Shown here piece by piece: positions 8,849 to 59,770 of a DNA stretch of 64,000 bases. A program made the translations under genes and the position numbers. The notes below the pieces were generated by a model. It had not been told where the DNA came from, ran no database searches, and saw only the letters and a program-made list of their open reading frames with translations. The stretch spans positions 12,685,721-12,749,720 of the forward strand of contig NC_092027.1 in NCBI RefSeq assembly GCF_042242105.1, written 5' to 3'. Within the stretch, counting starts at the first letter, position 1. The number at the start of each line of letters is the position of its first letter. Source of the DNA: Pempheris klunzingeri. Its lineage: Eukaryota > Chordata > Actinopteri > Acropomatiformes > Pempheridae.

Positions 8849-11800
8849 TGGGGGGGGGGATTCAATACAAACTGATGGCACGAATTTCAACCCATCATTT
8901 TCAGAAAGTTTTTTTAGTGCGTCGGGAGATATTTCATCAAAGAAGGGATTATCCTGTTTAGCAAAGCGTTCGGATCAAATGTTTCCTCTGCAGGGTGTCA
9001 GAGGGAGGGTGTGTGCGAGTAGTTTGCTGGGTGTGTTCTGAGGCTCAGTTGTTCCTGCTGGTGGGAGAGTGGTCAGCTACTGAATGTGAGCTAAGACTAA
9101 TATCAATAAAGCCAGGGATGATGACCCAAGTATTAAACCTCTTGCAGCATGATTCCTAGGACTGGGTGGAGTTTTGAATGTGCGACTTAAACTACTTGGG
9201 AGAGGAAATCGTTCTGACCCACACAAACAACAAAATATATTTTTTGTGAGGTTCAGTGCAGTCCTCATTAACTGATAATTTGTGTTTCTGTGGGAGCAGT
9301 TAAAACCTCTCAGCTGTAGTCGGTAACTCATTTACATCTCCACATTGCCCTTATTATTGCCTAAAATTCTCCTATCCAGCTGTGGTTTAATTTTGTTGTT
9401 GCATGTATCATTTGCACTCTGAAGTGACAAACCCTTCAAACAGGGTGCTAGTAGTACCTGTCCTTGCTGTGACTGTGCGATAATGATCTGCCCAGGCTGG
9501 ATGGTCGTGGCTGTCTGTGCGCCGGGCTGCTGGCCCTGCTGTGTTCCCTGCACCTGCACGGCTCCGGGCTGCTGGGCCAAAGTGAAGTAGTACTGCACCG
9601 GCTCTGCTGGAGCTACGGACTGACGCATCTCCTCCTGAAAATGACACATGACACACACATAACACACACACGCACACGAAGAAGGCCTATCAGTCCATTA
9701 CATCTCCATGAATTATTTTTGCAGGTGTAACTGTAGAGGGGGTCAGGTCTGATAAATAACTGATGGATGTGGCTGGGGTAGAGTAATGCAATCTTGACAT
9801 AAGATCCATTACAAGCACCATACTGGTCAATACCATAGACTGGAGGCCTGGAGGCGTGCTAGGATGAACATGATGATATGTTTGAACTCTGATCAAAATG
9901 AAAAATGTACACAAAAAAAAATCAAGCATAATTCTACTATTATATAGGTAGACTAAACTAATACCATGACAGTTATTGATTCATGTATGTAAATGCTCTC
10001 CGTCCGTCCTCTTCCTGGGTCACCCACAAAAGTGCAGCGTCAGAGTTTGCTGGGATTCGGTTTGCTCAGCAGGTTAGATGCTTGCTGGCATGGGGGCTTG
10101 AACCCTGGTCTAACAATTATCACAAATCAAATTATCAGTGAACACTGACCTGTGTCAGTCTGCCTCATAACTGACTAATGAGCAGGGCTTCATCCTGATG
10201 AGGTGTCTCCATCACCAGAAGCGTAAACACCCCTCTCCCAGCTCCATGACAACACAGCTGAGAGTGTAGGATGTTTACATGCCTGGAGACAGTCTACTTG
10301 ACAACGAATTTAAATATCTCACTCCTCCATCTTGTATCCTACATTTGTATACAGTACATCAATCTACTGGGCCAAAACGAAAAAATAATCTACTTGTTTT
10401 TTTGGGGGAAAAAGCACTTGATTTTACCCTTATTGAACTGGTCCCTGGTAGTGGACATATTTAAATGCTTGATGAAGTTGTGTTTTTCTGTTACTAATGG
10501 TACTAATGGTAAAGTAGTGTCTTTTTACCGAGGCTGCTGTTGGCTGTTAGAGGCAATAAGATGCTGCAAACATCCGACTGAAAGCCCTCGCTGTCCAAAC
10601 TCCAGCTTCCAGTCAAGGATGTTTACAGCACCTCCAGGTTGCCAACAATGGAAAAGCACCTGAGATGAACACCCAAATAGTCAGCTCTTTTTCCTGCATC
10701 AACTTTAACGTGTAGGCAAATTATTTTCCAAAAAAGCCAGAACACCTCTGGAGACATCTGCTGTTACTGTGCAGGTAATGAGACATGTACTTTCCTACCT
10801 GTCGTTTAGGAGGCTTCAGGTCATCCCGAGGCACGATATCAATCAGGAAGTCAAACTGGTCAAACTTTGTTATTGCCATGGCAATGTCATTCCTCTGTAA
10901 ACATAACAGAAACGGAGGGTCAAGTGATGAGGTCAGGCTTTAATTATGCAAATATAATATGCGCAGCAACCTATATATAAACATGCCTCAAGGCCGAAGG
11001 TCAGCTCTCCCAGAATAGCCACACAAGAGGCTACAGTGGAATTTGAATAAAGTTCCCAGCAGTACAGTAACAGGTATTTGCTCTGAAAGCCGAGCTTAAC
11101 AGAAGAGAGGATGAGTTTAGGTCACTTGATGAGGCGGCAGAAAATCTGCAATTATTTTGATAAACGATTATTATCATTTGAGTCAGGAAATTTTCAACAG
11201 ATTAAACAATGATGGAAATAATTAGTAGCAGCTCTGAATATCCTTCATGAAAGTTCAATAACTTTTGTCACTTAAGGCAAATTAAGATTTGTATTAACAA
11301 AAGTGAGCAGGAATGACACCTGCCTTCACGAGCAGAAGCTCTGCTGCTATAGCCCTTCCTATATCCACAGCAGTGCTCTGTCTCTGTGGAATTTTCCACA
11401 GGATATTGGCTGTCAGGACCCCCCATTGTGGCCCTCCCAGCACTGGGGGCTATTTATAGTAGCTTGATTAATATCTGGTAACACCAGGTCACATCTACAC
11501 TTGTTCTATTGATGAGCGTTGCTATGGTGACCCCAACTGGCGTGCCCTCTTCACAATAGCGCTCAGGCTCTGCATGTGTTTGTATGTGCGAACATGTGGA
11601 AATGGAAGGTACCGTTTTCTCTCACTTGGGTATAAGAAAATCAAGCAAGGTTCAACTGTCTCGTATAAATTGTAATTAACATGTAAACCTTCACAGTAAA
11701 TGAAGTTTCTATTTAAAGCATTCACTGTAGAGGTCTAACAATGGGACTTGTGTGCTAAAAAAAATGGACTCTGGGTCAAAGGTAAGCCAAGACCACAGCA

Positions 11801-26575: not shown

Positions 26576-29500
26576 CTATTTCCTTGCCACCAGTTCCAAG
26601 AGGGTGGAGGTGATTTTGTCCAGGTTGTTGGAGTAGCGACGGCCCCTGTCCATCCTGGCTCCTCGTTCCATCTGGATGGGAGGTGCAGAAGTGTGGGAGT
26701 CCACAAACCCCTCAGCAGCAGCAGGTCGGTAGTCGCGAGGGCGCATGGGTTCCTGAAACCATTCAGGATAACTTGCTGGCTCATCCGGATGGGAAGCATG
26801 TGATGACTGAGACATCTCAGGCCAACCAAAGCCCTCTGAAAGAACATCAAAAGGAACAGATTTTAAATGAAAGGACATGAAAAGATGCAGATCTTGTTTT
26901 ATTTTATCAGAGGGAAGCAGAATACATAGCATATTGTTAATCACAAGATTCATAGATCATGTCATTAAATCATAGGATAAATTAATATAAACTTTGCTTT
27001 GTGCACTTTGCCATTACACATAAAACTATCAGAAAATAGTACAGACACATGACACAGCAAATTTCAAATCAAGAATAATGAAGAATATTATATAATCTAC
27101 CTTCATAACAGCTTCTGTTTGAGTGTCTGGTTTCCCCGCGTCCAGGATGATGGTATTCATGGTCAGGTGCACGCTCATGCCGCTTCCAGCCTCTTTCTCC
27201 ATGATCTTCTTTAAAGTAGAGGTCTTCTGGTTGTCTAAGGTCTGAATCTTGCCTCAAGGTGGTCTCATACTGGTGCCTGGGAGACAGCTCTGGCTCTGGT
27301 TTTAAGCTGTCATAATCTTCGGCAAAGGCAGCTCTCACTTGGTTATTTTGCTGTGACAACAAAAACGAACATTTCTATGATTAATCTGCGCTGCGTTGCA
27401 GAGAGGAAGAGCATTAAACCGTGCATTACATTAGAGAGACCAACCCTGTGCAGGGTGAGACGTACCCCAGCTCTGTCAGCTTTTTTGTTCTTGAATTCTT
27501 TCAGGAGGTTGCAAAGTTTGTTCTTCAGGAAGTCAGCCTCTTCTGCATTTTCAATTTCAATGTTTTTCTAGTGACAAGAGAAAAACACATACTTAAGATG
27601 AGCAAATGCAGAGTGCTTAGGTAGCCACAAAGTCACATAGTTGCAAATGTTGATTCCAGCCAGCGACTTTGTTGCGTGTCACCCTGTTTCCTGTTTGTCT
27701 CCTCTCTGTACTGTCCAATAAAGGCAAAGATGCCAAAAACATAATCTTTAATGATATATAACAAAAAACCATTACTGATATTATGTTGGAAATCTGAATT
27801 TATGATCTTACCAGTATATCAAAGACACCCTCTGACTCAGAGCCTCCTCCTCTGTAGCTTTCTGCATGACGTGAGCTCTGGAAAAAAAAAACAGGTTTGG
27901 CACAGTGATGCCACGAGTACATGTTGTAGATTAGTTAGAAGTATGACATAAAGGCAGGTTGCTAGTTATTCACGACAAATAGTCTTATTTTACAATTACG
28001 TACCTGTGATTCTACATAAAGGTCAGGATGTGGTGCTCCGTGGATTTCAGGTCTAGGACGACCACCAAACTTTGGATTTGGAGGTCCGTACTCATCACTG
28101 AACCTAAAAGCACAAATTGAACATGTCCAGAACAATACTGTGAGAAGATGAAAATACAAAGCATTTAGTCAAACATGAAATAATTTTAAGTTTCATGGAG
28201 AGCAATCTTAACAGACCAGGCACATTATCACTCACATCTCCTTTGTCGTTTCCACCTCCTCTGCTGTGGCATCGGAGAAGCGGCTCTTTCTTTTTCTTTT
28301 GCCGTGGCCCTCGTCGTTAGCGGACCCTTTCAGGAAGCGCCTGAAAGGCTCCGGGATGTTACACATGGTCGTGGTAAGTTCCACTTGTCTCTGGGAGTTG
28401 GGAGGTACCGTTTGGCCCGGCCTGGGGTTGGCAACTGCTTCTTCGTGGTGAGGTTCTCTCCTTTGAAGGCCATAGCCTCTGATCGTATTAAACATATGGG
28501 CACTCGATCGGTCACTCTCCATAGGCGCGGGAAAGCTCCTCCTCGTGGCCCCTGGTTCAGTTGGTCCCTGCCTACATGCTCTATTCATACTGTTGTGTCG
28601 ACCAGACTCCCTGTCCAGAGACCACCGTTGGTTATTGCCCTCTGGGAACAATGGCTGTGACTGCTGATACTCGGCAGAACAAACTCGCCTTCGCCGGACT
28701 TCCTCAGAGTAGAACTCCTTCAGCTGATCTCTTTCTGGGTAAGGTCTTCTCTGTGGAGGAGCCTCTTCTGGGTAATACTCTACATGCTGAGCCTGCTGAT
28801 GGGGTGACTCCTCCCTTAAATCACGGCCGGGAATGCGACCACGCTCAAGTATAGCTCTTCTTTGCGGTTCTTCAACATATTTCTCTTCATACCCCCTTCG
28901 ATAATCAGGGTCCAGACAGTCTCTTCTGTACGCATCACTTTCACTGTGATCTGCCCTCTGAAGCTCCTCTCGCATGCTGTCCTGGCTGAGAGTGTCCTCC
29001 TGTTGGTACATGTGTCTGTCTCTATTTTTCAACATGTAAGGGTCTTCTGGATGGCACCGGGGTGTATTAGGGTAACTTGTGGGATACCTTCCTCGGTTAG
29101 AGGGCTCATGCTGAAAGTCCCTAAGCTGTGGTGGGTGTAATGGCCCATCTCGTTGGGCCAAACTTTTTTGCCCCAGCCTTAAGGGAACTAGGGAACAAGA
29201 GTAAGAGTAGTTTAAGTAGAATATATTGATATTAATTATGGATTGCTAGTGATCCGCAAACTTATTCTACATGCAGTAACTGTTCGTAAGCAGGTGAAAT
29301 TAGGCACTCAATTATTCTTGTGATGCACAGCAGAGGTCATTTATTCATTTATGAAGAAAAATCTGAAATAATATTGCTCTTATGAGCAGTTTTTAAATTA
29401 GGTCACTTTAATGCATCACAGTAGATTCAGTGAAAAGTCTTAAATGCATGTCACAACTTTAAAATAATGCCCAAACATGTTAAATCAGACAGTTTGTGGC

Positions 29501-32460
29501 ACTGACATATATATTTGTGTATTCACGTGCAGTTTTGTTGAATAAATTCATAGTAATCATTAGTCGGGCTTGGCCATAAAATCAGCCAGGCAGATATATA
29601 AATTCATCCATTAGCTTATTGAAGATACAGTGGGTCAAAAAAGTATTTAGTCAGCCACCAATTGTGCAAGTTCTCCCACTTAAAAAGATGAGAGGCCTGT
29701 AATTTTCATCATAGGTACACTTCAACTATGAGAGACAGAATGAGAAAAAAAAATTTCAGAAAATCACATTGTCTGATTTTTAAAGAATTTATTTGCAAAT
29801 TATGGTGGAAAATAAGTATTTGGTCAATAACAAAAGTTCATCTCAATACTTTGTCATATACCCTTTGTTGGCAATGACAGAGGTCGTTTCGTTTTCTGTA
29901 AGTCTTCACAAGGTTTTCACACACTGTTGCTGGTATTTTGGCCCATTCCTCCATGCAGATCTCCTCTAGAGCAGTGATGTTTTGGGGCTGTCGCTGGGCA
30001 ACACAGACTTTCAACTCCCCCCAAAGATTTTCTATGGGGTTGAGATCTGGAGACTGGCTAGGCCACTCCAGGACCTTGAAATGCTTCTTACGAAGCCACT
30101 CCTTCGTTGCCCGGGCGGTGTGTTTGGGATCATTGTCATGCTGAAAGACCCAGCCACGTTTCATCTTCAATGCCCTTGCTGATGGAAGGAGGTTTTCACT
30201 CAAAATCTCACGATACATGGCCCCATTCATTCTTTCCTTTACACGGATCAGTTGTCCTGGTCCCTTTGCAGAAAAACAGCCCCAAAGCATGATGTTTCCA
30301 CCCCCATGCTTCACAGTAGGTATGGTGTTCTTTGGATGCAACTCAGCATTCTTTCTCCTCCAAACACGACAAGTTGAGTTTTTACCAAAAAGTTCTATTT
30401 TGGTTTCATCTGACCATATGACATTCTCCCAATCCTCTCCTGGATCATCCAAATGCTCTCTAGCAAACTTCAGACGGGCCTGGACATGTACTGGCTTAAG
30501 CAGGGGGACACGTCTGGCACTGCAGGATTTGAGTCCCTGGCGGCATAGTGTGTTACTGATGGTAGCCTTTGTTACTTTGGTCCCAGCTCTCAGCAGGTCA
30601 TTCACTAGGTCCCCCCGTGTGGTTCTGGGATTTTTGCTCACCATTCTTGTGATCATTTTGACCCCACGGGGTGAGATCTTGCGTGGAGCCCCAGATCGAG
30701 GGAGATTATCAGTGGTCTTGTATGTCTTCCATTTTCTAATAATTGCTCCCACAGTTGATTTCTTCACACCAAGCTGCTTACCTATTGCAGATTCAGTCTT
30801 CCCAGCCTGGTGCAGGTCTACAATTTTGTTTCTGGTGTCCTTTGACAGCTCTTTGGTCTTGGCCATAGTGGAGTTTGGAGTGTGACTGTTTGAGGTTGTG
30901 GACAGGTGTCTTTTATAACGAGTTCAAACAGGTGCCATTAATACAGGTAACGAGTGGAGGACAGAGGAGCCTCTTAAAGAAGAAGTTACAGGTCTGTGAG
31001 AGCCAGAAATCTTGCTTGTTTGTAGGTGACCAAATACTTATTTTACCGAGGAATTTACCAATTAATTCATTAAAAATCCTACAATGTGATTTCCTGGATT
31101 CTTTCCCCCCATTCTGTCTCTCATAGTTGAAGTGTACCTATGATGAAAATTACAGGCCTCTCTCATCTTTTTAAGTGGGAGAATCATATAACTCTGACAT
31201 TTATCAATGGTCAGCTAATAAGACCTTTTAGCTTATTTAGCTTGAATTTTTACAGCAAAATTACAGCAATTTTGCACGAAGCCTCATCAATATATTACCC
31301 ATTATCTATAACTACAGAGAGTTCACTGTTTGAATGTACCTCTTGAGATGTTTAATTTACCCTTGTTCATCTTTTTCGCCACTAGCTGAAACATTAAAGA
31401 AGTAAACACAAACACAACATACGTTAGACTCAAAATCATTTTGTTATGATTTTAAAAGTACATAATATTCAGCATAGTTGGTTACTGAAATCTGAATGTC
31501 CTACCAAAGGACTCCCTCGTCCATCTTGTCTCTCTATTATCTCTGCTTTGGCTCGTATGATCTTTCCTCCTTGGGTTATTATGGACTGCTTATCCCACAT
31601 CACCAAGTCTGGCCGTTTCACTTCCTACAAAAACATAAACGACGTGAGACATTCTCGCTTCGTTTCGCCTTCTTCATGAAAAAGCCAAGCAGACACTTAA
31701 AAAGTTCTCTGAAAACGGTCACAATGCTTTACCACATATTTCTGCCGGTGTTTACGACCAATCACGTGACGGACCATTTCTGCTAGGTGTGCAGTCTGAT
31801 GACAGAGCCGACATGTGTATCTGGGGCCTGCTTGTGGGTCATTACATGGTACTTCGTCCAAATAGTTCAAACCTACATAATGAAAGCAAAAAAAAAAAAG
31901 TTAAATATAGATCTAATTAACATGAAAAATACAAAAAATGCTCAAAAATATGTATGAAGTTATTCACCAATGATGGGCTCATCAAGCTTCATGTATTCCA
32001 GATACTGTAAAATGTCCTCAAATTCGGGTATGAGACGCTGTCTGACAGCAAGTCCTGAGAAACCCAAACACTGGTAGTTAGCAAAAGAAAGCATCATAAC
32101 ACAGAGGGCTTTTTAAGATGATCACGCTTTTAGGTACGGCTACACTCCACATTTCTAACCACCTTTTGTGTTAAACCTTTTCCAGACTACTGTGAGCTTG
32201 ACGACACAGACATCTAGTATAAACGCACACGGCGGGCCAACAGGTGTGACGACGACTGTAGCTGCAGCCAAAAGGGTTCCTATCTCCCGTTCATATAGTG
32301 ACATCAGACTATTGCAAATGCGTGGCACACACATATTTATGCACAATCTCCAAAGTTTCCCCTTTGAACTCTCTGGTCCTCAAACTCAGCTCTGCCTTCA
32401 TCGGCAGGGAGGTCATCTCTCTGAAATCATGGGATGCAGTCTTCTCTGTCTCATGATGCT

Positions 32461-32506
<46 letters not shown>

Positions 32507-35500
32507 GCAAATGTCTCCAGATAAGGAAACTAAGATGATTTTATGGTATACAGAACCTCACTGTGCAAGAAAAAAGACCTAGTGAGGCATTATGGCCTGA
32601 GCCTCCTGTGTATCCATCTTAGGGCAAAAGCAGCTGATGTTACCTACATCACCAACAGTTGAGGAAAAATTATTTTTCCTACCATCCCAAAAATGGTCCC
32701 AATAAATTCATGTTCACAAATATGAGCGCGCCAAAGCTCTTAGCTCAGTTTAAACAAACAGAAGCCCACCACTCTGTATTTGAGCATACACCACATTCTC
32801 CAACAGGCAAAACTGGAACATGCCTCCCCAGGCTGCACATAAGCAAACATGCTCGTATCGCTTGCCTGTTTCTTTAATACAAGCAAGGAACTTGAACATA
32901 TTTTTCTCTTTTCTGCTTTGATAGTTGGATCAAATAATCAACTTGTTTTCTCACAGAAGAGGACCGTCTGAGGTGAAGGTAGAGAACTGTCCACAAACTC
33001 TCCTTGTACAGACGGTGAAAAGGAGCTTTTTATATATTTCCAGAGAGAAATGTTCTTAAAGCCAACCACTTGTGCCCACAGACTCCAGGCTGACCAGTCA
33101 GGCTACGCAGCAGACATTCCTCTCCCCAGTCCAGCTCACAGCGCGCTGAGCCCGACTCACCTGCTATTCATGTCCCTGATGCCATTGCATCTGGGGCTGG
33201 ATCCAGTCCAGGTGGTAGCTCTATAATTGTTCTCCCCCTGGTAAATGCATGAGCCTGTAAGCCCAAATTGAGGTCATTTTGTACTACAAAATCAGTGACT
33301 GATTACTAGACAGGATGTTTCCCATCCAGCTAGTAATATTAATGCTATGCAACATTTCTATGCAGTAACGTTTCAGAGGCCTGGTACACATTATGGGATT
33401 ACAGCAGAAAATGAACTGAATTTATGCAGCACTTTAAAAAAGGGAAGGAGAAAACACTGCCTGTCAGTCATTGATGTTTCTAACTATTCAGCTACAGACA
33501 GCAGTCACCTTACTGACCACAACGAGGTGCACAGTGGTACCTGTCTACCATTAACAAGATAAAAACACAACAGGGCATCCAGGTTGACATTTGAACAATT
33601 CAACTCCAGTTAGCTGCACTCGGGTCAATTTCAGTACCCAGGATGATGTGCCATTTCTGGCACTTAATTTACAACAAAACCTGCATTGGTCTGGCAATCA
33701 GACGTGCTGGATTTATACCGATATTAACTCTGAGGGACACTGTCCTCTCTGCAAACTAACCACAGTAAAGACCAGTCCAACATGCATTATATGGCATCTA
33801 TGTCAAAAAGTGAGCGTTACACTTGTAAGATTGTTGCTAGCCTCATGCCAAAACCATTGGCATTACTCCATAGCGGCCTCCACTCTTCTGAGAAGGCTTT
33901 CCACAAGACTCAACCCTGATTCCACTGATTTTCTCAATTCTGCCACAAGACCTTTAGTGAGGTCAGGCGTTGATGTTGGGCGATAAGGTCTGTCCTGTAG
34001 TCGGTGTTCCCGTTCATCTCAGAGCTGTTCGGTGGGGTGAGGTCAGGGCTCTGCCCGGGTAAGTCAAGATTCTCCTTAAGTTGGAACCAAGGGGTCTGAG
34101 CCAAAGCATGAAAACAGCCCAAGACAAAAAGTACATCAAAGCATGTTGAGATACTTTTGGCTGTACAGCATAAAGATCAAGATCAGAATTTCAAGTTTTT
34201 ATATCTGACTATTAGGCGCTAGCACACATCATCAACACGGTTCATAACCGTTCTTAGAGATTCACTACCACTGACGACTAAAGAAAAACACCCCTAAAAC
34301 TAGGCATCAGATTAGAGTGACCACTGCTACCTTTCTGTGTGGACTGAATTACTTGCCAGAATAGACAGCAAATATACTCAAGGCCGGAACAGAACAAAAT
34401 GACAAGGCTGAAGATGAAGTCTACTTACCCGCAGCAACAAGGCCATCCTCTTTCTGCCAGGAACGAAAGGAGAGCAATTAAATTAAGTCAATCAGTGCTA
34501 CTGCAAACAGAGAAAGGGTTATATCATGGAAACATTTTTTAAACACATTATGGTCAACTGAAACCACAGCTCACTTGAGGTGCGGTTACGGTGCATATCC
34601 TCACCTGTTTCTGTTAAGTTACATTTTCATAGTGAGTCCATAAGGAAATAAAGTAGTTGAGGAAAAAGGAGCATTTCCTCCTGGAGGTCACTTTTAAACA
34701 TAACTGCACATAAAGCGCCAACTTCCTGTGAGACCAACTTAATGTGAAAATGGATGGCTGTATGGAGAGAAGCAGTCGTGTTTTTTTCAACACGACCAAA
34801 AGACACAGACCAATGTTGAAGTTGCTTTTGCACGCACAACTACAGTGATTGTATTGGGCAATATGCGGCTGACCACACATCAGCGCTGAGGCTGAGTGTA
34901 TCCAGTGTAGACACTGAGGAAGGACCGAAGCTGGTGACAAGCTGATGTAGCTAGACAGTGTGGACAAGGTGTTAGCATCTGTAATGCTCGGCTGTCCATG
35001 TTTATTTATTGTTTCTGTTCCACGCCTGACATTCCAGCAGTACAGCGTGTGAATGTGAAGTCAGTGACCCAAGGACATCCTCCATATGAAACACTATACA
35101 CACTCCACTGAAAGGACATGCTGACAAAGTAAGACGATCTCTCACGAAATCCTGCTCCACAGAATGACCAAGTTGGCTTGACCAGATGACCCGACTCCAC
35201 TGGAGATGGTTAAGAAGCTTAACTCAAATTATTCTAATATCCTTGTAAAAGTATCCAGGATTTCTGGTTGTCATGCACAAAACCCATCAACAACCATTAC
35301 GGTGGTGGGAACTGAGAAAGAACCATGGCTATAAACTGTTGCTGTTGTTGCAAGAAAACCTTCAGCTGCAGCACAGCTGCAGGTGAAGGCTTCCTGAAAA
35401 CAAATGTCTGCTTCAGAATAGAAAAGAGACATTTTGTGAGCATTCACAAAAGCCGTTTTTCAAAAACAGGAAACCTGCTGTTGTCCCAAGGAAGTTGTGT

Positions 35501-37001
35501 CCGTCACAATCGTCCACGTGTGATAATGTGGGACAACATGAAGGAAACGTTGATCAAGTCCCATAGGTATGTCTGACTTAAATGTGTTAACAAGCTTCTC
35601 GTGTGCCATAAACTTCGTGCAAGGTGCACTCAACCAAGACACAGTGATGAATGGCACACAGCCTCCATGATGATCAAAAACAAATATTGGTAAACATTCA
35701 TTTCCCCTGTTTGCTTGTTGATGCTGAAGACATGATTGAAGATTGCGCAATTTTTTCAGTCATGGGAGCCCAAAAACAAAATTTTAGCACATGTTAATAA
35801 AATGCCAATGTGCACTGAATATAAGCTTCATGTCTGACCCAAATGAAATGCAAGAACACCCTGCAGGGTGTTGTCACCGATCTTGTACTTACTTTACCAC
35901 CAGTTCATGCAATGTTTGCATACCAAGATGCATGGCAGGACAGAATTATGGATTATGATCGCAGGCAGGCAAAACATCAGAAATAAAATACTGGAGAGGT
36001 CTTCAAACAAAAAAAGAGCCCAGAGATGTTGGTAGCGACTTGGAAAGATAGTGAAATATCACTTTTGGTTGCTTCTTTTTTGCAGTACACAGTTTTTTCT
36101 TGAACCTGTGGAATATCAGTGAGTGGATGAAAAGAAACACCAGCAGGTCATCGTAGAAACACAACTCATTATGAAATGCTCACTGACCATTAATTTGACC
36201 AATAACAGCACTAACTGTTTTAGCTACATCAGAGTTCAACACTGCGTTCACAGATTGCATTGCTTTCTGCTCCAGTTAATGGTGCTGTGTACCTTTATAT
36301 GCCCTGGCGTAGTCAAGTGTATCTTGTACAAGGTTTCACCCCTTATGGACTTTTCACAGATCTGGATTAAAAGAGAAAACATGAATCATTTAGTATCATA
36401 CAATAGTAAGATATACAGCATCTGAACTAACTATCCTCAATCCTATCAATGTGATGGATAATCAGAAGGCTCCACAATAACCATTAATTTTAATAAACGT
36501 TCATCAAAAACTGATTAGAACCTTTATGGAAGTAGGGAGTTGATTTCATATCTGCTGTATTACACTGGATTAGGTTTACCTGATTAACTTGAAGGTGATC
36601 TAATCATCAGTGACCACAAACTGAACATCATGCCCAATATGTATCAACCTGATGGGCAGTGAATGACCAAGACACAAACTAAAACACACACAGTGTAGTG
36701 TGATGTGTGCAGTATATACTGTATCTGAGATATAATTACCAAATCACTTCTGTCAAACTAATGTTCATTTTATTGTCTCCTGTCCAAACTGTACTTTTGC
36801 TTTTTATTTTGGCAATATTGTTCCAAAACCTCCATGCCAAAAAAGAAAATGAAAAACCTGGCTAGCTCTGTGTGCGAGCCAAGCAGCATGTCTGCCTTGA
36901 ACTTTGGTTCATGTTTGGTACATGTGAGATGACGGTAGCTAGCTTACCGTGCACTCAATAAACTCGGCTTCATCGTCGTATGGTGTCTCCAGCTCGTCCA
37001 T
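26576..37001 (-). CDS. Matrin/U1-type zinc-finger protein with one finger, 726 aa, function unknown
   Basis: Twelve coding exons: 36948-37001, 34429-34453, 31968-32054, 31733-31872, 31505-31624, 31361-31385, 28236-29187, 28004-28103, 27812-27877, 27466-27567, 27101-27350 and 26576-26835. Phases agree throughout and the total is 2181 nt. The N-terminus is acidic ([18 protein letters not shown]). A P-I-I-G motif ends at about residue 56, followed by a matrin-type C2H2 finger (C76, C79, H91, H97; [18 protein letters not shown]). This finger class binds double-stranded RNA or serves in splicing factors. A large Arg/Glu/Tyr-rich disordered exon (about 151-467) ends in a basic nuclear signal [11 protein letters not shown] (446-456). 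Helical segments follow at 524-557 and at the C-terminus ([15 protein letters not shown]). Two exons are only 25 nt. The long middle intron carries a Tc1 copy. I do not recognise an orthologue name; it may belong with ZNF318-like or other uncharacterised fish matrin-finger proteins. A nuclear RNA-related role is inference. Confidence 0.85.
29628..31183 (-). mobile_element. Tc1/mariner transposon, transposase intact, right terminal repeat truncated
   Basis: The left end starts CAGTGGGTCAAAAAAGTATT at 29628 after a TA dinucleotide. The inner part of the same repeat is found inverted at about 31110-31183, where identity stops abruptly at AGTGGGAGAA. The outer 43 bp expected on the right are absent. 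The element lies in the intron between exons 31361-31385 and 28236-29187 of the one-finger zinc-finger gene, in the same orientation. Confidence 0.92.
29838..30866 (-). CDS. Tc1/mariner-family transposase, 342 aa
   Basis: An uninterrupted frame of the usual length for Tc1-like transposases (about 340 aa). It has an N-terminal paired-type helix-turn-helix DNA-binding region ([34 protein letters not shown]), a second HTH with a GAPRK linker, and the DDE catalytic domain. The catalytic residues are seen as D in VIWSDETK (about 154), D in [11 protein letters not shown] (about 245) and E in [12 protein letters not shown] (about 281). [13 protein letters not shown] glycine-rich box is also present. 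Enzymes of this family cut and paste DNA at TA sites. The frame shows no stop or frameshift, which suggests a recent insertion. The start is the ATG of [12 protein letters not shown], the family's usual beginning. Confidence 0.95.
32460..32506. repeat. (TTG)15 microsatellite
   Basis: Fifteen uninterrupted TTG units in an intron of the one-finger zinc-finger gene. Confidence 0.97.
33866..34171 (-). mobile_element. Internally deleted, degenerate Tc1-like element
   Basis: The minus strand encodes a decayed stretch of a second Tc1 subfamily's transposase C-terminus (GQSPDLTPP where PDLNPIEHLW is expected, then a [13 protein letters not shown] remnant). It ends with a terminal-like GATACTTTTGGCTGTACAGC at about 34171. 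Most of the transposase is missing. It lies in the intron between exons 34429-34453 and 31968-32054. Confidence 0.7.
34460..36940. other. First intron of the one-finger zinc-finger gene
   Basis: About 2.5 kb between coding exons 36948-37001 and 34429-34453. No exon, RNA gene or identifiable mobile element was recognised. Confidence 0.6.
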
Positions 37002-38559: not shown

Positions 38560-41500
38560 TCAGTTTGAAGAGTTGTAAAGTCCTCCTGAAAGATTGTTCA
38601 GCCGGGAACGCAGCTCCTTCCGGACCTGGGTCACCCTCGCCAGTTTGCGCTTGTACTCCTGAAAAAGCAGAAAAAGTCCATCAGAGCTCAATAATCTTGC
38701 ACTCTGAATTAGTGACATTGTGATTTTTGTACAGTTGTAAGTTAAGGATTGAGATCATATAGTTGGAATATCTTAAACCAAAAAATGGAAATATGGTTTT
38801 GTCACTTAAGTTGATGACTTTATATTACAACTTTATATTACACATTACAGAATGTGATGTTAATTGAATAAAATAAGAAAAAATCTAACTCAAGTTTAAT
38901 TTTAAAAAAGTTTGGATTCTGGCCCAATATTTCCCTCAGCATTGTTTTGTCCTTTACAATTAGTCTCATGTGTAGACACCAACATGTATATGAGAGAGGT
39001 TGTGTGAGTGTTAAAGACACATTTTTGGCTGTGAAGCTTGCAACCCATATACCTGTCAAACTACTGAATGTATGATGCGATTGGGGGGGTGGGGGGGTTA
39101 TCCCTACTTTTGCCTCAGGCTCATGGTTTTACTTTCACTTCCAACTGTGAAACACATAAAGTGTTATCAAAAATAAATAATGTTGTGAGTATATACTAAT
39201 CAGAGAAGGTTAAAGTATTTGGATCTATTTTACTCTCTGTAGTAAAGATGACCAACTAAAGTGCAGGGAATTTGTTATATTACATCCTAGTGACCCATTA
39301 GTGTGTTTGAAGTCTTAACAAAAATAACATCTGTAACACAAAGCTGAAGGCCAGTCAGCAAAGGAACAAACCATGCTGACACATTATTTGACCCAATTCA
39401 TGTATATGCACCAATTCTGACTTGTTAAACAGTAACAGTAACATCAGGTGTCACTGAAATATTTTGTGCCTGTTTCAGCTTTGCTGTACGTGTGTGATTG
39501 ATCTATGTTCGCTGAAGCATGTTGTGCAAGAGGAATGAATCCTCAGGCAGTTGGGGTTCACTATGAATCACATACTTCCAATTATATCACATCATGTTAT
39601 CAGTACTGAGTGTTGTTAACAGGCAAAATAATCCTGCTCTGTTTTCTCCTCTCTTGACCTGTGATGACGTCATGAATTGCACTGAGCTTAATTTGACCAT
39701 GAGTGTGTAGCTATCACTTGCTGTGTCAATGCTACACAAACAAATAAATACTGTTATTATGGACCATCTTTGAAATTGAAAATTTGTACAATGCATATAC
39801 CACCAGGAGCTGCAAGTTACAGCAAAATAAAAGCACTCACAAAATCAGTTTTATTTTTTATTTTCATTTTTTTTTTATTACAAAACTCTGAGTGAAGACA
39901 CAGATATGAAGTTCCTTCTCCTCTTGGTATCCTGTGGATAAAGGCTGGACAGTTATTGTCGCCACAAAAAAGAATGGGTATAAGAAAAAAAGAACATCTG
40001 TGGGAACTAAGTACACACTGAGTTAAGACTGAATTAAAAAGAAGTGGCATTTCCCAATGACAAGGGAATTTCTTACTTGAATGGTGTGCATCTCATTGGG
40101 AATCTTTGTGTTTGTAACGCCAGCAGGCCCGACAATAAAACTGAAAAATAAACTCTGAAATCTACAGTCTGATTCAGCAACAAGACAGGCACTCTGCAAC
40201 ATGCTGAAATACATTAAAAGAAATGCTACTTCAACAGGTTGACAGACAAGAAGTGTGAGCACACAGCCACACAGAAACGAACACCAAGAATCATTAGTGA
40301 AGACACACAGATGAGGTAGACACAGACAGATAAACAAATGGTAATTAAAAGGAAGAAAAAGTGATTTACGCACTTCGAGTTTCTGCTCGTTCTGGGTCAG
40401 GCCATCCTTCTGGCTTTGCAGGAAGACTGTTAGTGTGCGTGTGAGCTGCCTCCTATCGTCAATCTCCGCTGCCAGGCGACCGCTGTAGTCTGCTAGCAAC
40501 ATGCAGGCCTCCTCCACCAGCCGGGAGAGTCGCTCCCCCGATTCCTTATCTAAAGTACAGAGAGCACACAGAGAGCAGGGCACAATGCCTCAACATAACC
40601 AGTCTGGAGGATTCAACTGCAGGTCATTCGCTTATTCATCAATGCCGCTGCAATGTAAATAGCGACTGCCTGGTCACCAGCAAACCAAACATAGTTTCAC
40701 ATAGTTGGTAGAGGCATTTTTAGCCCTTTTAGAGTAAAACCTTTCTGAAGATCAGTGAACCATCTTTGAATATGTAGAAAAATCATCCAGTGCAGGTTAC
40801 TCAGCCTCTTGTGTATCTATGTGTATATGCATGTGTGGGCTTTGGATGTCTTTTCCTCTGTTTGTCTTGTCCACTGGATTCCTGTCACACCCTTATCTAC
40901 CCTAGGTATCTAGCCTTTGGCGGAGTTTTCTACCCAGTCTGAGCTGCATGCCCAAATAACCTGACTCAGACGACCGAACCCCGGTATGAAAGGGGGCATT
41001 ACTGGCCTCACCGTACCGTACATAGGATGAGCCTCAATGAGAAGGACTGAGGACCCAGAAGCGACACCGCAATTGGTCTTCCGTACACCACATTGCCTAT
41101 ATCCACCCATCGGACAAGGAGTCTGTCTTGGGCTGTCCTCTCTTTTCTCGCTGCTACTAAGGAAACCTGATCAATTTCTATTCCTCTGCTTAGTAATAGG
41201 CTTAAATTCATGGAGTTGCCTTTTTTGATCTGAGGTCGTGGTCAAGCAGTTTTGGTCCATTGGTGGGTCGGAGAAGGAGGAAGAGAGGAAGATAAGCCAA
41301 CAGGGAGGAGGTAGGGCCAGCAGGCCCACACACACCTCACCAGACATCCCAAAGTCTGAAGTCAATTTTGGACTCGTGTATAGAAATCCACTTACTAGTA
41401 AGTTGATAACGCATTACTGTGCACTTTATGTGTTCAAGTTTTTCAAAACATTAAAAGGGGTTGCCATAACAATTTGCACTCCTACATCTAAATGCATGGA

Positions 41501-49412: not shown

Positions 49413-52400
49413 TTAGAAAGCACAAGGCTCTGGTGCAGTGCTGCCACAGTAAGCAAGGGGATCTCCCAAGTGAGGTTGCATGTTGATCCTAGCAGCGTCC
49501 AAATGAGGAGTCAGTTCACCCGCAAACCATGCTGCCCCACACTGACTGTCACAAGATTCGTATGGTCTCGTGCCAATGTACTGATTTTGTGGCTGTTGTT
49601 GGTAATAATGTTGTGTTGCATCTGAGCTCATCTCCCTCTGTCTCTCTTCTGTGTTGAATTGAGCTGAATTGTACCACTGCTCAGTGTAAGCCACCTCACA
49701 TCGATAGGAAGAGTAATAAGATGACCAGTCCTGAGTGTCGCACACAGCAGGCGACAGCCACTCATTTTGTGTCTCCGGGTATTCGTTTTGCCACCCTTCG
49801 TAGAACGTCTCAGCTGATGTTTCCTGAGAGCCATGCTGTCTGTTGTCAATCTTTCCCCCATAAAACGTCTGGTCATTTGTCCCAGTTATGTCTTTGGACT
49901 GGTTGAAGTACTGATAGTCACTGAAATAACCATCCAGCTCCTGATACTGAGTGACGTTTGTTGCTGGTCTCATGTGCTGACCAGCATCTGCATCTCCACC
50001 ATAGACATCTTGCTGAAGTTGTGAGGTTACACACAGCGAGTTGTGTTCAGCGTGGTCAACAGTCTCACAGTCCAACTCACAGTCCTCTGACTGAGACTCT
50101 GGCGCAGATGGAGGCGAGTATGCCAATGACACAGGAATTCTGTCCATGTTGAAAGACGTCCTCGCCAGCAGCACTGACCCTTTGGCAATAGGCAGGCTTA
50201 CCTTAAACACAATATTATTCGCTTTCTTCTTCTTCCTCTTTTCCCATTTTGACAGCGCTACCCCACATTTCTCTTGCACTCCTTGATTTGAAGTCTTACT
50301 CACACTTGGCCCTTGAAGAAAAGGTGTAAATGAGATCCACATAGCTTAAAAAACAACAGGAAATCATAAAAATACTGACAGAAAAAACACACACCTTTGG
50401 CAGCTATTTTCCTCTTTTGGGTGTTAGTGTGTGTCCCTCCATTCCATAGCATCTTAATACCTGAAAACAAATACAGGACGTATGCAAATAAAAAATAATC
50501 ATAAACATGCATAAGTCTCAAAAGCACAAAAGCAAATTTGGTGAAGGAATAAGAGAGCAATTCAAAGTAGCGGGCTTGACTGCTGGAGAAGAAAGAGTAG
50601 TTGAACACTGGTACCCCTAACGCATCAACGGGGGTAAATAACAAAGAATGAAGCTAACAGGGTGAATAAAGCAACATTAGATAATAAAGTGTGAGTGTCC
50701 GTTGCTCAAAACTCAATCCCTACACTATAAAAAGTGAGTCTAAACGTTTCTACTTTGTTTTATCAAGTGGAACGGAGGCTGTGGTCACCTTGGATTCATG
50801 GTGGCTACTGCATGCTTATCTTTTCTTTAACCGACACCTTTCAAGTCTGAAGAAAGCTGAGTGTTTAAAACTTGAGGCATCACTTTTATGCACAGTACCA
50901 AGTATAGCACCACCTTCTTGAAGAAATGAAACTGTGATAAGGAGTGAGGGTGTAGACACTCATACTTACATCACAAGAGAGTTGGAGCTAAAGAGGTGAA
51001 TGGTTTATGGCCAAAGAACACAGTGGGTGGGAATGCATCTGTACTTACACCAGTGGTAACTTTTGCCAGTCAGTAGGATACAGAGCGATTCTGGTGCGTT
51101 TACCACCTGGAAATGAGATGTTTTTGACTGACAAGTGAACTCAAGACTTTTTTCTTTTTTTTCTAAAGAACATATGGGTTATATACAAGGCGGGATAATA
51201 AATGCGATACCTTCAGCTCTCCTCTGCCTTCCTCTTGCTCCACCTTCTGGGCCAGTGATTGGAGATGCTCAAAGTTGTTATTAATATCTGTCATCATTAG
51301 CCCCAACTGCTCAGGATGGGTTTCCATCTACACACACACGTTTTCAGTGAACTTAAATTTCAAACCTGGCATGTTCTGGATTTGTGCTCTTCTACATTTC
51401 AGTTAATGATCCACAACAAACTAACCAAATAGTTCACGAGATGAGAGGAGCTGGTTAGGTGATCAATGATGTCCTTTTTGTTGGATCTGATGCGGCAGCA
51501 GTGACATAAGAAACAGTATGTGTGGCCGTCTTCGCTTCTACACTCAACCACGTGCAAGAGACCTGTTGCAAACATATATAAGCAGCTTCTTTTAATGCCA
51601 TAGTCTGACATTTTAGGAAATTCACTCCTTCGCTTCCTTGCCAAGACTTTGATAGTAAGATAAATGCCACTGCCATGTTTGTTCAGTTAATATGTAGCTG
51701 GAGCCAGCAGCCGGTTAGCTTAGCTTAGCACAACGCCTGGAAACAACATGGTCCTTGGCTGGGAGCAGTTTCCAGGCAACTAGTAGAGAGACTATATGAA
51801 CTTCATGGTCCCGCTCAAGAAATAAGCTGAACCAAGATAAGCTAACCAGCTGCAGGCTCAAGCTACATATTAACCGAACAAACATGGCAGTGGCATTTAT
51901 CAAATAAAGCAAATAAATGGATTTCCTGAAATGTTGAACTATTCCTTTAAATAATCCATACCCATAATATATGCAGTAGCACTCAGTAAAACTCTCACAA
52001 GAGTATCCACTATGAATGTCTGATGTGCAGCACTTATTATTGGTAATGGAGCAAGTAATAGTAATTTAGTTTTTTCATTTAATTTCACATTTCTTTTTCT
52101 TTACAGCTTCAGTGCATCCCAATGATCTAGCTACTGTAATCTATTGTAAAGATGCATTTTTCAATCATGTTGAAATCAGTTTTACATTGTCTGTAATCTT
52201 AGCACTTGTTGTCGCCATTCTTTATCTCTGCTCACCAATAAGAGGTTTGGTTCCTGTGTACCCATCAAGAAAGCTGCTGCTGTTCTCTGACAGCACAGAG
52301 AGTTCATGTGGCATCTGAGTATTGTCCCACGGTGACATTGACGCCTTCTGTAACCAGCTGTCTGACTTGACAAAAGGAGCTATAGCTGACTGTATTGGAG

Positions 52401-53664
52401 ATGGAGGCTTGTTTGTCTCTGCTGAGGTCTTGAGGGATTTCTCTGACCATATCTGTTGGCTCTTGGTGAGCAATACAATCCTCTGCGATTGGGTGGGACA
52501 GTGCTCCAGCGGCATAGATGTAGTCTCTGAACCGATCTCTGGTTCAACCTGCCTCTGCCCATTTCTTAAAATATTTATCAGAGTTACTGCTGTGGTGTTA
52601 GAGAGAGAAACAGACACACGTGGAGTGAAAAAAGGAGCCGAGAACACATGGAACTAAAGCCACTAAAAACACAAAGGATATCACACACAGGAAATGAGGA
52701 ATTGTGAAATGAGGGCGGGATTGAGTTTGAGGACCTAAATAAGTGAATGGTGACTGACCGTCTTTCTCACAGAGTGTTGCCATCGTCAGGAAAACAGCAT
52801 CTCCAACCTCAAGCAACTTAATATGAAGGTGCAAAGAGATATGAGTACTCCTACCCAAAACACTCCACTGTTTGCAATGACAAACAAAGATATAAGCAAT
52901 CAAAATAACAAACCTGGACATCGCCAGGCCCCTCTTTTCCCTCAAGTGTCTTGGCTATATCCATCAGTGGCCAGGCCAGCTTAGACAGGTCAGAGTTCTC
53001 CTTCCATTCAGACACTAGGTGGGGGTGCCAGGCTTTCTGTTAAGCAAACCACCACCCGTTAATTAACTACAATGTAAAGCAGCAGGCAAACTTGCCATTG
53101 TGACTTCTTCTACAGCACTACTTACAATGTAGTTGTATCTGTGGATACTCCCCATAATGTGGTTCCGCATGTCAGCTTTACTATGTCGACACACACACAC
53201 CTCACACAGATAAAATGCTTCTCTGTTGTGTGTGCTCGCCTTTACACATTCTATAATACTGCCCAGGCCTGAATGTACATAAAATAATAAATTATTTAAA
53301 TGCACACACACAACACTGACAACATGTACAAAAAAATAGGTGCTACAGACCAATAATGGGTTGGAGTCTGTTCTCGTTGTTCAGATACACCTTCAGAGAA
53401 TGGAATAGCTGGCTTTTGGTAGAAACTCCTACAACACAGAGAACACATCGGACATAATTACAAACATAATTACAGGGAACAGTGTAAGCATGGTAGCCCT
53501 AATGCAGAAAGTTAAAGACAAACCTTTTCGTGTTTCAACTGGCTGCATGTTGCACTTGTAGAATCAATACCTGTGTACAGCTGAAGTTGGAGTTTAAAGT
53601 GAGTGATGAAGAAAACTTGTGCTTCTGGCCAATCTTCACTTGTGATGATGTGGTGGAGAAATAT
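49413..53664 (-). CDS. Matrin/U1-type zinc-finger protein with two fingers, at least 707 aa, 5' end unresolved
   Basis: Exons: 53571-53664, 53351-53428, 53126-53268, 52914-53036, 52759-52816, 52236-52586, 51426-51562, 51211-51327, 51049-51106, 50395-50460 and 49413-50311, all with GT/AG borders and agreeing phases. Finger 1 (53126-53268) reads LCEVCVCRHSKADMRNH then IMGSIH. Finger 2 (51426-51562) reads YCFLCHCCRIRSNKKDIIDH then LTSSSH. Both have C-x2-C ... H-x5-H spacing, the class found in matrins and U1-C-like RNA-binding proteins. Each finger is followed by a helical exon and a 58-nt exon, so a three-exon unit has been duplicated inside the gene. The long last exon begins with a basic cluster (KWEKRKKKK, likely nuclear signal) and becomes acidic, then Tyr/Gln/Asn-rich (DWSSYYSSYR, HYYQQQPQNQY). 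The start codon lies upstream; see the candidate exons at 53755-53791 and 57.1 kb. I do not recognise an orthologue. A nuclear RNA-associated role is inference. Confidence 0.85.
51612..51934. mobile_element. Large foldback (palindromic) element
   Basis: Arms of about 65 bp at 51659-51723 and 51834-51901 are near-perfect inverted copies (GATAAATGCCACTGCCATG at the left, its complement at the right). An inner inverted pair lies at 51735-51744 and 51768-51777 (GCCTGGAAAC/GTTTCCAGGC). Weaker flanking symmetry (TTAGGAAAT / ATTTCCTGAA) extends outward. There is no coding capacity. It lies in the intron that separates exons 52236-52586 and 51426-51562 of the two-finger gene. It resembles a MITE-like foldback repeat. 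Confidence 0.8.
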
Positions 53665-53935: not shown

Positions 53936-55866
53936 ACTGTAAAAGTGGGTGGGACTTTCTGGCACAGAGTTAAACTGGTTCAAATCTTACTTACAGGATA
54001 GGGACTACTTTGTGTCAATTGGTAATTTTAAACCTGAGCAAACAAAAATAACACAGGGTTCCTCAAGGGTCCATTCTCGGACCTCTTCTCTTTCACGTCT
54101 ATTTTCTCCCCTTTCTCATTGTTGGAATGTTTTTCTTATGTTTATGTTACATGTTGCAGGAACATGTACTCCGGATGGTATTTATGTTATCCATAAGTCA
54201 GCAATCTATCTTCTTGGCTCCGCTTTGTCAGGACAACTCCTCAGGCTAAGGAAAGGTCACGTCAATCATTGGGGTACCCCCTCACAAACATGAAATCAGA
54301 TATTACTTGAAGAACCCTCTATATGTGGAAGCCTTACTCTGTATTCTTTGGTCTCTCATCTACGCCTGTGATGTTAGACAACAAGCTCATAAACTACATA
54401 AAGTTCTTAAATGCATCTTGGTGTCATCTCTTCAGTTTGAACAACCACAGAAAAGCGTCTCTACACTCATGTCATTGAATCTTATAACATCTCCTACCAT
54501 ACTTATGCAGATGATGCACAACTGTATGTAACAGTGTCTCCACATGACCACAATCCCTTACATTTGCTAAACAAATGCATTAAACACATTGAGTGTATGT
54601 GCCAGAATTTCCTACAACTAAATACAGATAAAACTGAAATAATTTATTTAGATTATGATGAAAATCTCCACTCCTTTTTGTTTCTTTGTGCTTCTCACTC
54701 ACTGGCACATGTTCTTCCTCACAGGTTTAGTGCAATCTGTTATTGCTACCACTCTGTAACAGGTACCACTCTGTAAAACAACTCCTTTTATGGTCATGTC
54801 CACCGAGACAATCTGTGCAAAAATGTATCCAACTCACATATTTGTTAACTGCACCCTGCATGGGTGGATGCAGTCTGCCCAGCAACAGCCTGTTACAAAT
54901 ACTCTGCATCTCACTCTGCTCTTTAGAACACTTTGCAGACTACGCTGTACTCTGTATTGTTTCTCCCTTCTTGCAAGAATAAAGACACAACAAAGAACTC
55001 CTCACAGCGAACTCTTTATTTACAGAAATTTCCACGACAAGACCCCAAACACAAAAGATTAAAAGTCAGTGCACACCTTGATTTCATTGCATTAAAGCCT
55101 ACTAATCATGCCAGAAATCTTGGTGTTATAATGGACTCAGACCTAAATTTCAATTCCCACATAAAAACAATCAGCCTACTACCACCTTAAAAATATAGCC
55201 AGAATTAAAAGATGTTTGTCTAAAGAAGATACAGAAAAACGTATTCGCTTGTTTATCTTTAGTAGGCTGGACTATTGCAATAGTGTCTTCACAGGTCTAA
55301 ATAAAAAATCAATTAGACAACTGCAGCTTGTCCAGAGTGCAGTGGTCAGAGTCACTACTAGCACCAAGAAGGAGAAGCACATCACACCGGTACTTAAATC
55401 CCTCCTCTGGCTTCCAGTGTTTAAAATCCTACTGTTTACCTACAAAGCATTAAATGGTCTTGGGGCCCAAATACATCACTGACTTACTTGTACATTATGA
55501 GACATCCAGACCCCTCAGGTCATCTGGAGAAGATCTACTCAGCGTTCCCAAAATCAGAACTAAGCAAGGTGAAGCAGCTTTTAGTTTCTATGCTAAAATT
55601 GTCAGCTCATTACTGTTTACTGTGGCTTTCCAATAAATGAACTACATAACTTTTTGTAATCCACAATTATTTATCCACATGCTTGTCTTTTTTCTCCTCT
55701 TAAGCTTTAACTATTTATTTGCTTGTACTTTTATTATCTTTTACATGCAAATTTAGCGTTTTAATGTTTCTCTGTCTTGTTTTTATTGTGTTTTATGTCC
55801 CTGTAAAGCACTTTGAATTGCCTTGTGTCTGAATGGTGCTATATAAGTAAAACTGCCTTGCCTTGT
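53936..55866 (+). mobile_element. Degenerate L2/Maui-type non-LTR retrotransposon
   Basis: The plus strand carries a broken reverse transcriptase. WFKSYLQDRDYFVSIGN lies near 53970, a frameshifted PQGS.LGPLLF-like box near 54060-54095, the YADD active site at 54504-54515, then FLQLNTDKTEIIYL near 54610. The RT C-terminal region is at about 55065-55600 (NLGVIMDSDLNFNSHIK, SRLDYCNSVFTGLNKKS, KSLLWLPV). The 3' end (55795-55866) has the conserved L2 tail GTGCTATATAAGTAAA with a short CTTGCC repeat. Stops, frameshifts and two inserted blocks (about 54100-54470 and 54700-55035) show it is dead. It lies just upstream of the recognised exons of the two-finger gene, antisense to it. Confidence 0.85.
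54700..55035 (+). mobile_element. LTR-like insertion inside the L2 copy
   Basis: A block with no LINE similarity separates the DKTEIIYL region from NLGVIMDSD. It contains a pyrimidine-rich stretch, an AATAAA at about 54978-54983 followed by ACTCTTTATTTACAG, and few other features. This order resembles the R-U5 part of an LTR. Exact borders and target duplications were not defined. Confidence 0.35.
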
Positions 55867-59031: not shown

Positions 59032-59129
59032 GCCTTCTCCTTTTATGCCCAAAAATCTGCTGGGTCTGCCCTAGGATATCATTTGCCTGCCTACTGAATC
59101 ATCTTACCATTTTTACACTATTAGCTCCA

Positions 59130-59770
59130 AACTCATCTGAACCTGTTGTGGGGGCTACAGACACACAGCGCAGTGAGCACACGAACTGGAGTGAGGGAGA
59201 GACAAGAGCACTGCTACATAGTCAGACTGCAGGCAGGACAGGTGAGAAACATGAGCGACAGAAAATGTTGTAAAATTTGGACAAATTTTAATACAATTGA
59301 TAGTTTGAGGGCAGAGTGCAGACTTTGCAAAATTAAAATTTCATATCAGGCAGGCTCCACAAACAACCTGCACAGACAAGTGTGTACTGTTCACCCATCA
59401 ATTCAGTTAGAGGAGAAGGGTCAAGCAAGGGAACCTGCTGTTAATGAAGGTGCCAATGTGTCTACTGCTCCTACAATGTCTACAGCATCATCCAGGACAA
59501 CACCACAGCCACCAAGACCTGCAGCCCAGAGCTCTATGACCCCAGTAAAACTAAATAATTTAAAATTAATAAAGCAATATAAACAATAACTATTCTATAT
59601 AATGTGTTTTTTACATTAGTAATTCATTTTACACATAATTTGGTAATACATTTATTGAAGCAACAAAAAATCTGAGGAGCCACTTGGGAGCCGAAAGAGC
59701 CGTCTCTTTTTAGGGAGCCGAGCCAAAAGAGCCGGCTCTCTAAAAAGAGCCGAAATTCCCATCACTACTG
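59130..59770 (+). mobile_element. hAT transposon remnant with BED-finger fragment and one terminal repeat
   Basis: The plus strand encodes the start of a hAT transposase from about 59250: CCKIWTNFNTIDSLRAECRL, then CKIKISYQAGSTNNLHRQ and VCTVHPSIQLEEKG. This is a BED-type zinc finger with the C-x2-C pair, but the first histidine of the expected LxRH position is Q. The frame then ends at 59589 and the catalytic domain is missing. The right end (59676-59770) has repeated GAGCC(G) words and ends TTCCCATCACTACTG, the complement of a hAT-type CAGTAGTGATGGGAA terminus. No matching left terminus was found, so the element cannot move. Confidence 0.8.

What the first reader, a model, noticed from the sequence alone, without database searches (positions are those of the whole stretch)
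51049..53268. A three-exon zinc-finger module, used twice in this gene and once in its neighbour
Unit 1 in the two-finger gene is exons 53126-53268, 52914-53036 and 52759-52816. Unit 2 is exons 51426-51562, 51211-51327 and 51049-51106. Lengths are 143/123/58 and 137/117/58 nt. The one-finger gene has 31733-31872, 31505-31624 and 31361-31385 (140/120/25 nt). In all three, the first exon begins in phase 1 inside a Gly codon after a P-I-I-G or P-L-I-G motif and ends in phase 0 straight after the finger at a Tyr plus aliphatic residue. The second is 0-0 and ends in an E/D-G-x-G-type helix ([28 protein letters not shown]). The third is 0-1. This looks like one ancestral domain of finger plus helix plus strand, duplicated within and between genes, and I know no description of it as a unit.
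Basis: partly seen in the sequence, partly recalled or inferred. Interest (0 to 1): 0.75.

Follow-up and report, generated by a model that had tools for sequence, protein, structure and literature searches.

The report
Duplicated zinc-finger domain in fish genes
Two neighbouring, almost unstudied fish genes share a building block of about 100 amino acids, a zinc finger wrapped in extra helices and strands, which has been copied within and between the genes and probably helps these proteins hold RNA or RNA-protein machines.

Summary
Profile-profile comparison of ortholog families joins all three units even with the finger masked (E 1.5e-8 to 1.3e-14; 0 of 60 shuffles reach any pair). AlphaFold2 gives the same helix-strand-finger-helix-strand order. 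So there is one ancestral domain, bounded by phase-1 introns, used three times. The zinc ligands (C-x2-C-x11-H-x5-H) are essentially invariant. No Pfam family reaches its cut-off on the unit. The nearest known things are U1C/JAZ-type, RNA-associated fingers (TUT1, TUT4, SF3A2, ZNF346) and, from a recalled sequence only, the third finger of ZFR. I read it as an undescribed, extended variant of that finger in ray-finned fishes, most likely RNA- or RNP-binding in si:ch211-13c6.2, the more acidic copies in si:ch211-199g17.2 perhaps turned to protein contacts. No binding was tested.

The parts
53524..53548 (-). first coding exon of the two-unit gene si:ch211-199g17.2 (MQPVETRK, ends phase 1)
   Evidence: P0121 N-terminus; sequence; tblastn
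53351..53428 (-). phase 1-1 exon before unit 1, ends in P-I-I-G; predicted helix
53126..53268 (-). unit 1, exon a (phase 1-0): strand plus C-x2-C-x11-H-x5-H finger, ends Y-I
52914..53036 (-). unit 1, exon b (0-0): long helix, ends GKEGPGDVQ
52759..52816 (-). unit 1, exon c (0-1): strand plus helix
52236..52589 (-). linker exon (1-1), largely disordered, ends in P-L-I-G before unit 2
51426..51562 (-). unit 2, exon a (1-0): strand plus finger, ends Y-L
51211..51327 (-). unit 2, exon b (0-0): helices, ends QEEGRGELK
51049..51106 (-). unit 2, exon c (0-1): strand plus helix
50395..50460 (-). exon after unit 2 (1-1), CIKMLWNGG...
49413..50311 (-). last exon of the two-unit gene, predicted disordered tail with a conserved V-F-K-V-S-L-P stretch
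36948..37001 (-). first coding exon of si:ch211-13c6.2 ([18 protein letters not shown]), start of the N-terminal finger
36293..36361 (-). second exon of si:ch211-13c6.2, rest of the N-terminal finger ([23 protein letters not shown]); not a copy of the unit
34429..34453 (-). third exon of si:ch211-13c6.2 (KEDGLVAA, ends phase 1)
31968..32054 (-). phase 1-1 exon before unit 3, ends in P-I-I-G; predicted helix
31733..31872 (-). unit 3, exon a (1-0): strand plus finger, ends Y-V
31505..31624 (-). unit 3, exon b (0-0): helix, ends [10 protein letters not shown]
31340..31385 (-). unit 3, exon c (0-1), 46 nt; the finding gave 25 nt (31361-31385)
   Evidence: P0004 reads GKLNISR here
28236..29187 (-). 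large, mostly disordered exon of si:ch211-13c6.2, contains [15 protein letters not shown] near its end (about 28256-28302)
26576..28103 (-). remaining five exons of si:ch211-13c6.2, with conserved helices and the C-terminal helix [15 protein letters not shown]

Best explanation
A single ancestral protein domain of about 100 residues (helix, P-I-I-G turn, strand, U1C/JAZ-type C2H2 finger with kinked helices, long helix, E/D-G-x-G turn, strand) is encoded by a block of exons bounded on both sides by phase-1 introns. Because the block is symmetric it can be copied without breaking the frame, and it now occurs twice in si:ch211-199g17.2 and once in the linked si:ch211-13c6.2. Shown here: the exon architecture, homology of the three copies outside as well as inside the finger, near-invariant zinc ligands, the shared predicted fold. 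Inferred: the finger binds zinc; in si:ch211-13c6.2 the basic stretch G-R-K-H-R-Q-x-Y docks on structured RNA or an RNA-protein particle, as U1C/JAZ-type fingers do, in a nuclear, probably splicing-related protein with long disordered arms; the two copies with acidic tails in si:ch211-199g17.2 form a paired scaffold whose ligand may be protein rather than RNA.
Confidence: 0.6

Rival explanations
1. The unit is homologous throughout, but its present job, above all in si:ch211-199g17.2, is protein-protein binding; the finger is a structural core and RNA is not the ligand.
For: Post-finger parts of U1 and U2 are net acidic (medians -4 and -5) and U2 lacks the basic G-R-x-H-R; U1 and U2 do not match solved RNA-associated fingers by profile.
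Against: Unit 3 keeps a basic helix (G, R, H, R invariant and K, Q, Y at 90% or more in 82 sequences) and matches TUT1 and ZNF346 fingers; the finger exons of all three units are slightly basic.
Confidence: 0.3
2. The three regions are unrelated C2H2 fingers that happen to share exon lengths and phases.
For: Intron phases have only three states and C2H2 fingers are common; unit identities are only 21-26%.
Against: Finger-masked profiles still match, 0 of 60 shuffles for each pair. Twelve columns are identical in 17 chosen sequences of the three units: the four ligands and eight others, namely P, I, G, L before the finger, a Tyr just after it, and E, G, G in the tail.
Confidence: 0.02
3. The unit is the third-finger segment of ZFR carried into new genes, an offshoot of a described RNA-binding protein and not a separate domain.
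Against: The ZFR letters are recalled and were not fetched. With the finger masked the match to U3 falls to 16% (still above 40 of 40 shuffles) and for U1 and U2 to chance level (3 and 7 of 40 shuffles as good). No DZF domain, part of ZFR, in the four full-length proteins scanned.
Confidence: 0.25

Closest known systems
TUT4 Lin28-interacting-module zinc finger (PDB 6iw6, PMC6488673)
   Same: U1C-type C-x2-C-xn-H-x5-H finger inside a larger domain of helices and three strands with kinked finger helices (paper passages); aligned to residues 7-94 of the two-unit model
TUT1 N-terminal zinc finger (PDB 9j8p)
   Same: 44 residues of unit 3 at 1.2 A, 32% identity; profile match 92%
   Different: Only the finger region aligns; the P-I-I-G helix and the E-x-x-E/D-G-x-G tail are not shown to have counterparts
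SF3A2 / PRP11 matrin-type finger
   Same: Up to 64 residues, from the helix before to the helix after the finger, align in both models (5z56 chain v; named SF3A2)
ZNF346 (JAZ) dsRNA-binding finger (PDB 2mkd, 2mkn)
   Same: Unit 3 profile match 94% over 26 residues
   Different: Finger only. 2mkd is the top Foldseek row for the one-unit gene (E 0.84), but VIA-align puts both JAZ entries on its N-terminal finger, not on the unit
ZFR third zinc finger (recalled)
   Same: G-x-x-Y-V-E-E-V strand, finger, Tyr and P-D-L in the same order
   Different: No DZF domain in the fish proteins scanned; little similarity left with the finger masked; ZFR not fetched

Membership tests
U1C/JAZ-type C2H2 zinc fingers | C-x2-C-xn-H-x5-H ligand spacing | tested here: met
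   C-x2-C-x11-H-x5-H in all three units; no other residue at the ligand positions in 105, 113 and 111 rows (two rows gapped at the Cys)
U1C/JAZ-type C2H2 zinc fingers | Pfam zf-met (PF12874) or zf-C2H2_jaz (PF12171) match at the curated cut-off on the unit | tested here: not met
   0 of 17 unit sequences; the zf-met match above cut-off in paddlefish P0262 lies on the N-terminal finger, residues 17-39
U1C/JAZ-type C2H2 zinc fingers | beta hairpin with the Cys pair followed by kinked helices with the His pair | tested here: met
   predicted only: E52-56 E61-63 H65-73 H75-85 and E275-280 E285-287 H292-297 H299-309; E96-99 E104-107 H108-115 H118-128
U1C/JAZ-type C2H2 zinc fingers | RNA or RNP binding | not testable with these tools
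   needs experiment
ZFR | C-terminal DZF domain | tested here: not met
   no DZF in P0001, P0121, P0262, P0240 at E up to 1
ZFR | sequence relation to the third finger | tested here: inconclusive
   recalled ZFR letters: U3 96%, U1 87%, U2 32%; finger masked 16%, 0.6%, 0.3%
TUT4 LIM zinc-finger domain | five-helix, three-strand domain around the finger | tested here: inconclusive
SF3A2/PRP11 | fold of the finger region | tested here: inconclusive
si:ch211-199g17.2 and si:ch211-13c6.2 orthologs | near-identity to named fish proteins over the units | tested here: met
   P. klunzingeri P0121 100% over 93% and P0004 100% over 82% of the scored query; next P0122 77% (si:ch211-199g17.2) and P0001 87% (si:ch211-13c6.2)

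The most novel reading that the evidence does not exclude
The unit is a separate, unnamed domain family: an enlarged U1C/JAZ-type zinc finger whose P-I-I-G strand and E-x-x-E/D-G-x-G tail form part of the binding site, spread by copying of a phase-1 exon block, and carried by a pair of linked ray-finned-fish genes that act as splicing or RNP factors (one of them a transcript linked to egg survival in zebrafish) with no counterpart in tetrapods.
Probability: 0.25. Interest if true: 0.6.

Novelty: new variant of a known kind. Interest (0 to 1): 0.42.

Why it matters
It turns two families of 'uncharacterized' fish proteins, the one-unit gene being present from paddlefish to perch, into carriers of one recognisable domain, gives a concrete hypothesis (RNA or RNP binding by an extended U1C-type finger) that can be tested on a construct of about 110 residues, and is a clean case of a symmetric exon block copied within and between genes.

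Tried and rejected
Chance sharing of exon phases by unrelated fingers: rejected by the finger-masked comparison. The N-terminal finger of si:ch211-13c6.2 as a fourth copy: rejected, 1-6% against the units. Further copies in the window: none seen; a six-frame scan of 2,812 open fragments of 15 or more residues with six unit profiles gave nothing below E 0.01 outside the three known places. An upstream exon 53571-53664 that I first added to the two-unit gene (part of the queries): dropped, since P0121 starts at 53548 and P0122 and P0143 also start MQP. Tetrapod relatives: none among the listed hits (120 of 127 listed; 120 of 142 listed; 37 of 37); the search needs shared 5-residue words and a length window and the weakest hits were not shown, so this is no proof of absence. 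Whether paddlefish has the two-unit gene was not searched. Fold libraries: no Foldseek match with E up to 0.001 for either model; the viral library was not searched; the unit was not folded by itself. PDB by sequence: nothing under E 0.009 for the unit profile, nothing at all for the full-length two-unit profile. Literature: the locus names were found in one paper only, where si:ch211-13c6.2 is one of 29 genes selected as associated with zebrafish egg survival (PMC6631549, passages); two searches gave nothing on the unit.

Full report
What was checked. The exons named in the finding were cut out and translated. The last one needs correcting: the P. klunzingeri protein P0004 continues through GKLNISR, and P0001, P0085 and P0087 have like residues, so the third exon of unit 3 is 31340-31385, 46 nt.

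What the genes are. Protein searches name the one-unit gene si:ch211-13c6.2 and the two-unit gene si:ch211-199g17.2. It is a percomorph teleost. si:ch211-13c6.2 was also found in paddlefish, tarpon, an eel, salmonids and carps, hence it is older than teleosts (paddlefish is in Acipenseriformes). Every named hit listed is, as I read the names, a ray-finned fish; only two names were looked up. The two genes stay linked: 54 of 100 contig lengths typed for the two-unit gene recur among 114 typed for the one-unit gene, goldfish among them (equality of length is a proxy for the same contig, and some rows were left out).

si:ch211-13c6.2 is not a one-finger gene. Orthologs begin with a second C2H2 finger, and its exons lie in the window at 36948-37001, 36293-36361 and 34429-34453. 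It has no convincing profile similarity to the units (1-6%). In paddlefish this finger passes the Pfam zf-met cut-off (21.6 against 21.2 bits).

Are the units homologous outside the finger? Ortholog alignments were made from the 120 listed proteins of each gene and cut at the unit borders; rows covering under 60% of a unit and duplicate rows were dropped, leaving 105, 113 and 111. hhalign gives 99.3%, 98.4% and 97.3%. Post-finger parts alone: U1-U2 95.7%, U2-U3 67.9%, U1-U3 15.0%; each lies above 60 of 60 column shuffles, U1-U3 only just (18.3 against a best of 17.1). With the finger masked in both profiles the three pairs reach 98.3%, 95.9% and 95.5% against at most 15.5%, 10.1% and 2.1% in 60 shuffles each (the identity figures are inflated by masked columns and are not used). 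The helix and P-I-I-G before the finger also match (U1-U3, 78.8%; 0 of 60 shuffles). In 17 chosen unit sequences the invariant columns are P, I, G, L, the four ligands, Tyr, Glu and two Gly. The shared block therefore runs from the helix before P-I-I-G to the strand after E/D-G-x-G, and both the three-exon unit and the four-exon block begin and end in phase 1.

Fold. AlphaFold2 on P0121 gives for unit 1 helix 15-25, strands 39-44, 52-56, 61-63, helices 65-73, 75-85, 99-117, strand 123-127, helix 129-137; unit 2 has a short helix 249-252, strands 265-270, 275-280, 285-287, helices 292-297, 299-309, 311-323, 325-339, strand 345-349, helix 351-357. P0001 gives helix 64-71, strands 83-86, 96-99, 104-107, helices 108-115, 118-128, 137-142, 145-159, at lower confidence after the finger (blocks 64-73), and its last strand is seen only as single bridge residues. 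The rest of both proteins is mostly predicted at pLDDT under 50.

How it may work. Near-invariant ligands argue for bound zinc. Unit 3 has a basic tail (median net charge +4) and keeps G-R-K-H-R-Q-x-Y; the tails of units 1 and 2 are acidic (-4, -5), while the finger exons differ little (+2, +1, +2). I therefore think unit 3 touches RNA and that units 1 and 2 may have moved to protein contacts. The motif S-R-F-S-D-A-T, in P. klunzingeri after K-R-K-R-K, is found in 113 of 144 si:ch211-13c6.2 proteins examined (31 lack the exact string; isoforms and partial models are among the 144), and paddlefish has KIRKSRWDTP after the unit. They resemble SF3b155 KRKSRWDETP, a ligand of the splicing factor SPF45 (PMC2791216, passages). 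This points to splicing but rests on a short motif that has Phe in place of Trp in all 113. si:ch211-13c6.2 is among 29 genes selected as associated with zebrafish egg survival (PMC6631549, passages).

Noticed in passing
29671-31183: A Tc1/Sleeping Beauty-like transposon in an intron of si:ch211-13c6.2: a 361-codon stop-to-stop frame with HTH_SB, HTH_Tnp_Tc3_2 and DDE_3 domains, bracketed by long inverted repeats (24 nt at 100%, 65 nt at 92%, 86 nt at 78%).
   Followed up: partly
40026-40589, - strand: Exon with a CREPT domain (RPRD1-like by recall) between the two genes (Pfam 57.3 bits, cut-off 29.3).
   Followed up: partly
9335-9697, - strand: Exon that looks like NFYC by recall; no Pfam hit. 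Two ortholog records of si:ch211-13c6.2 (P0091, P0113) bear a nuclear transcription factor Y subunit name and histone-fold Pfam domains, which suggests a read-through model and a conserved neighbourhood.
   Followed up: partly
54441-54773, + strand: Reverse-transcriptase fragment (RVT_1, 17.1 bits, below cut-off 29.6) just upstream of the two-unit gene.
   Followed up: no
59125-59586, + strand: Open frame with a weak BED zinc finger (19.1 bits, cut-off 20.6), perhaps a hAT-type transposon.
   Followed up: no
P0262 (paddlefish), residues about 182-191; window about 28256-28302: SF3b155-like KIRKSRWDTP in paddlefish and [12 protein letters not shown] in the window's si:ch211-13c6.2.
   Followed up: partly
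P0110, P0087, P0262: si:ch211-13c6.2 of Myxocyprinus, Gadus and paddlefish carries long runs of near-perfect short repeats (RYEDDPRAFGEVK, ERFQEQGG, GRYPEDDSR) in its body.
   Followed up: no
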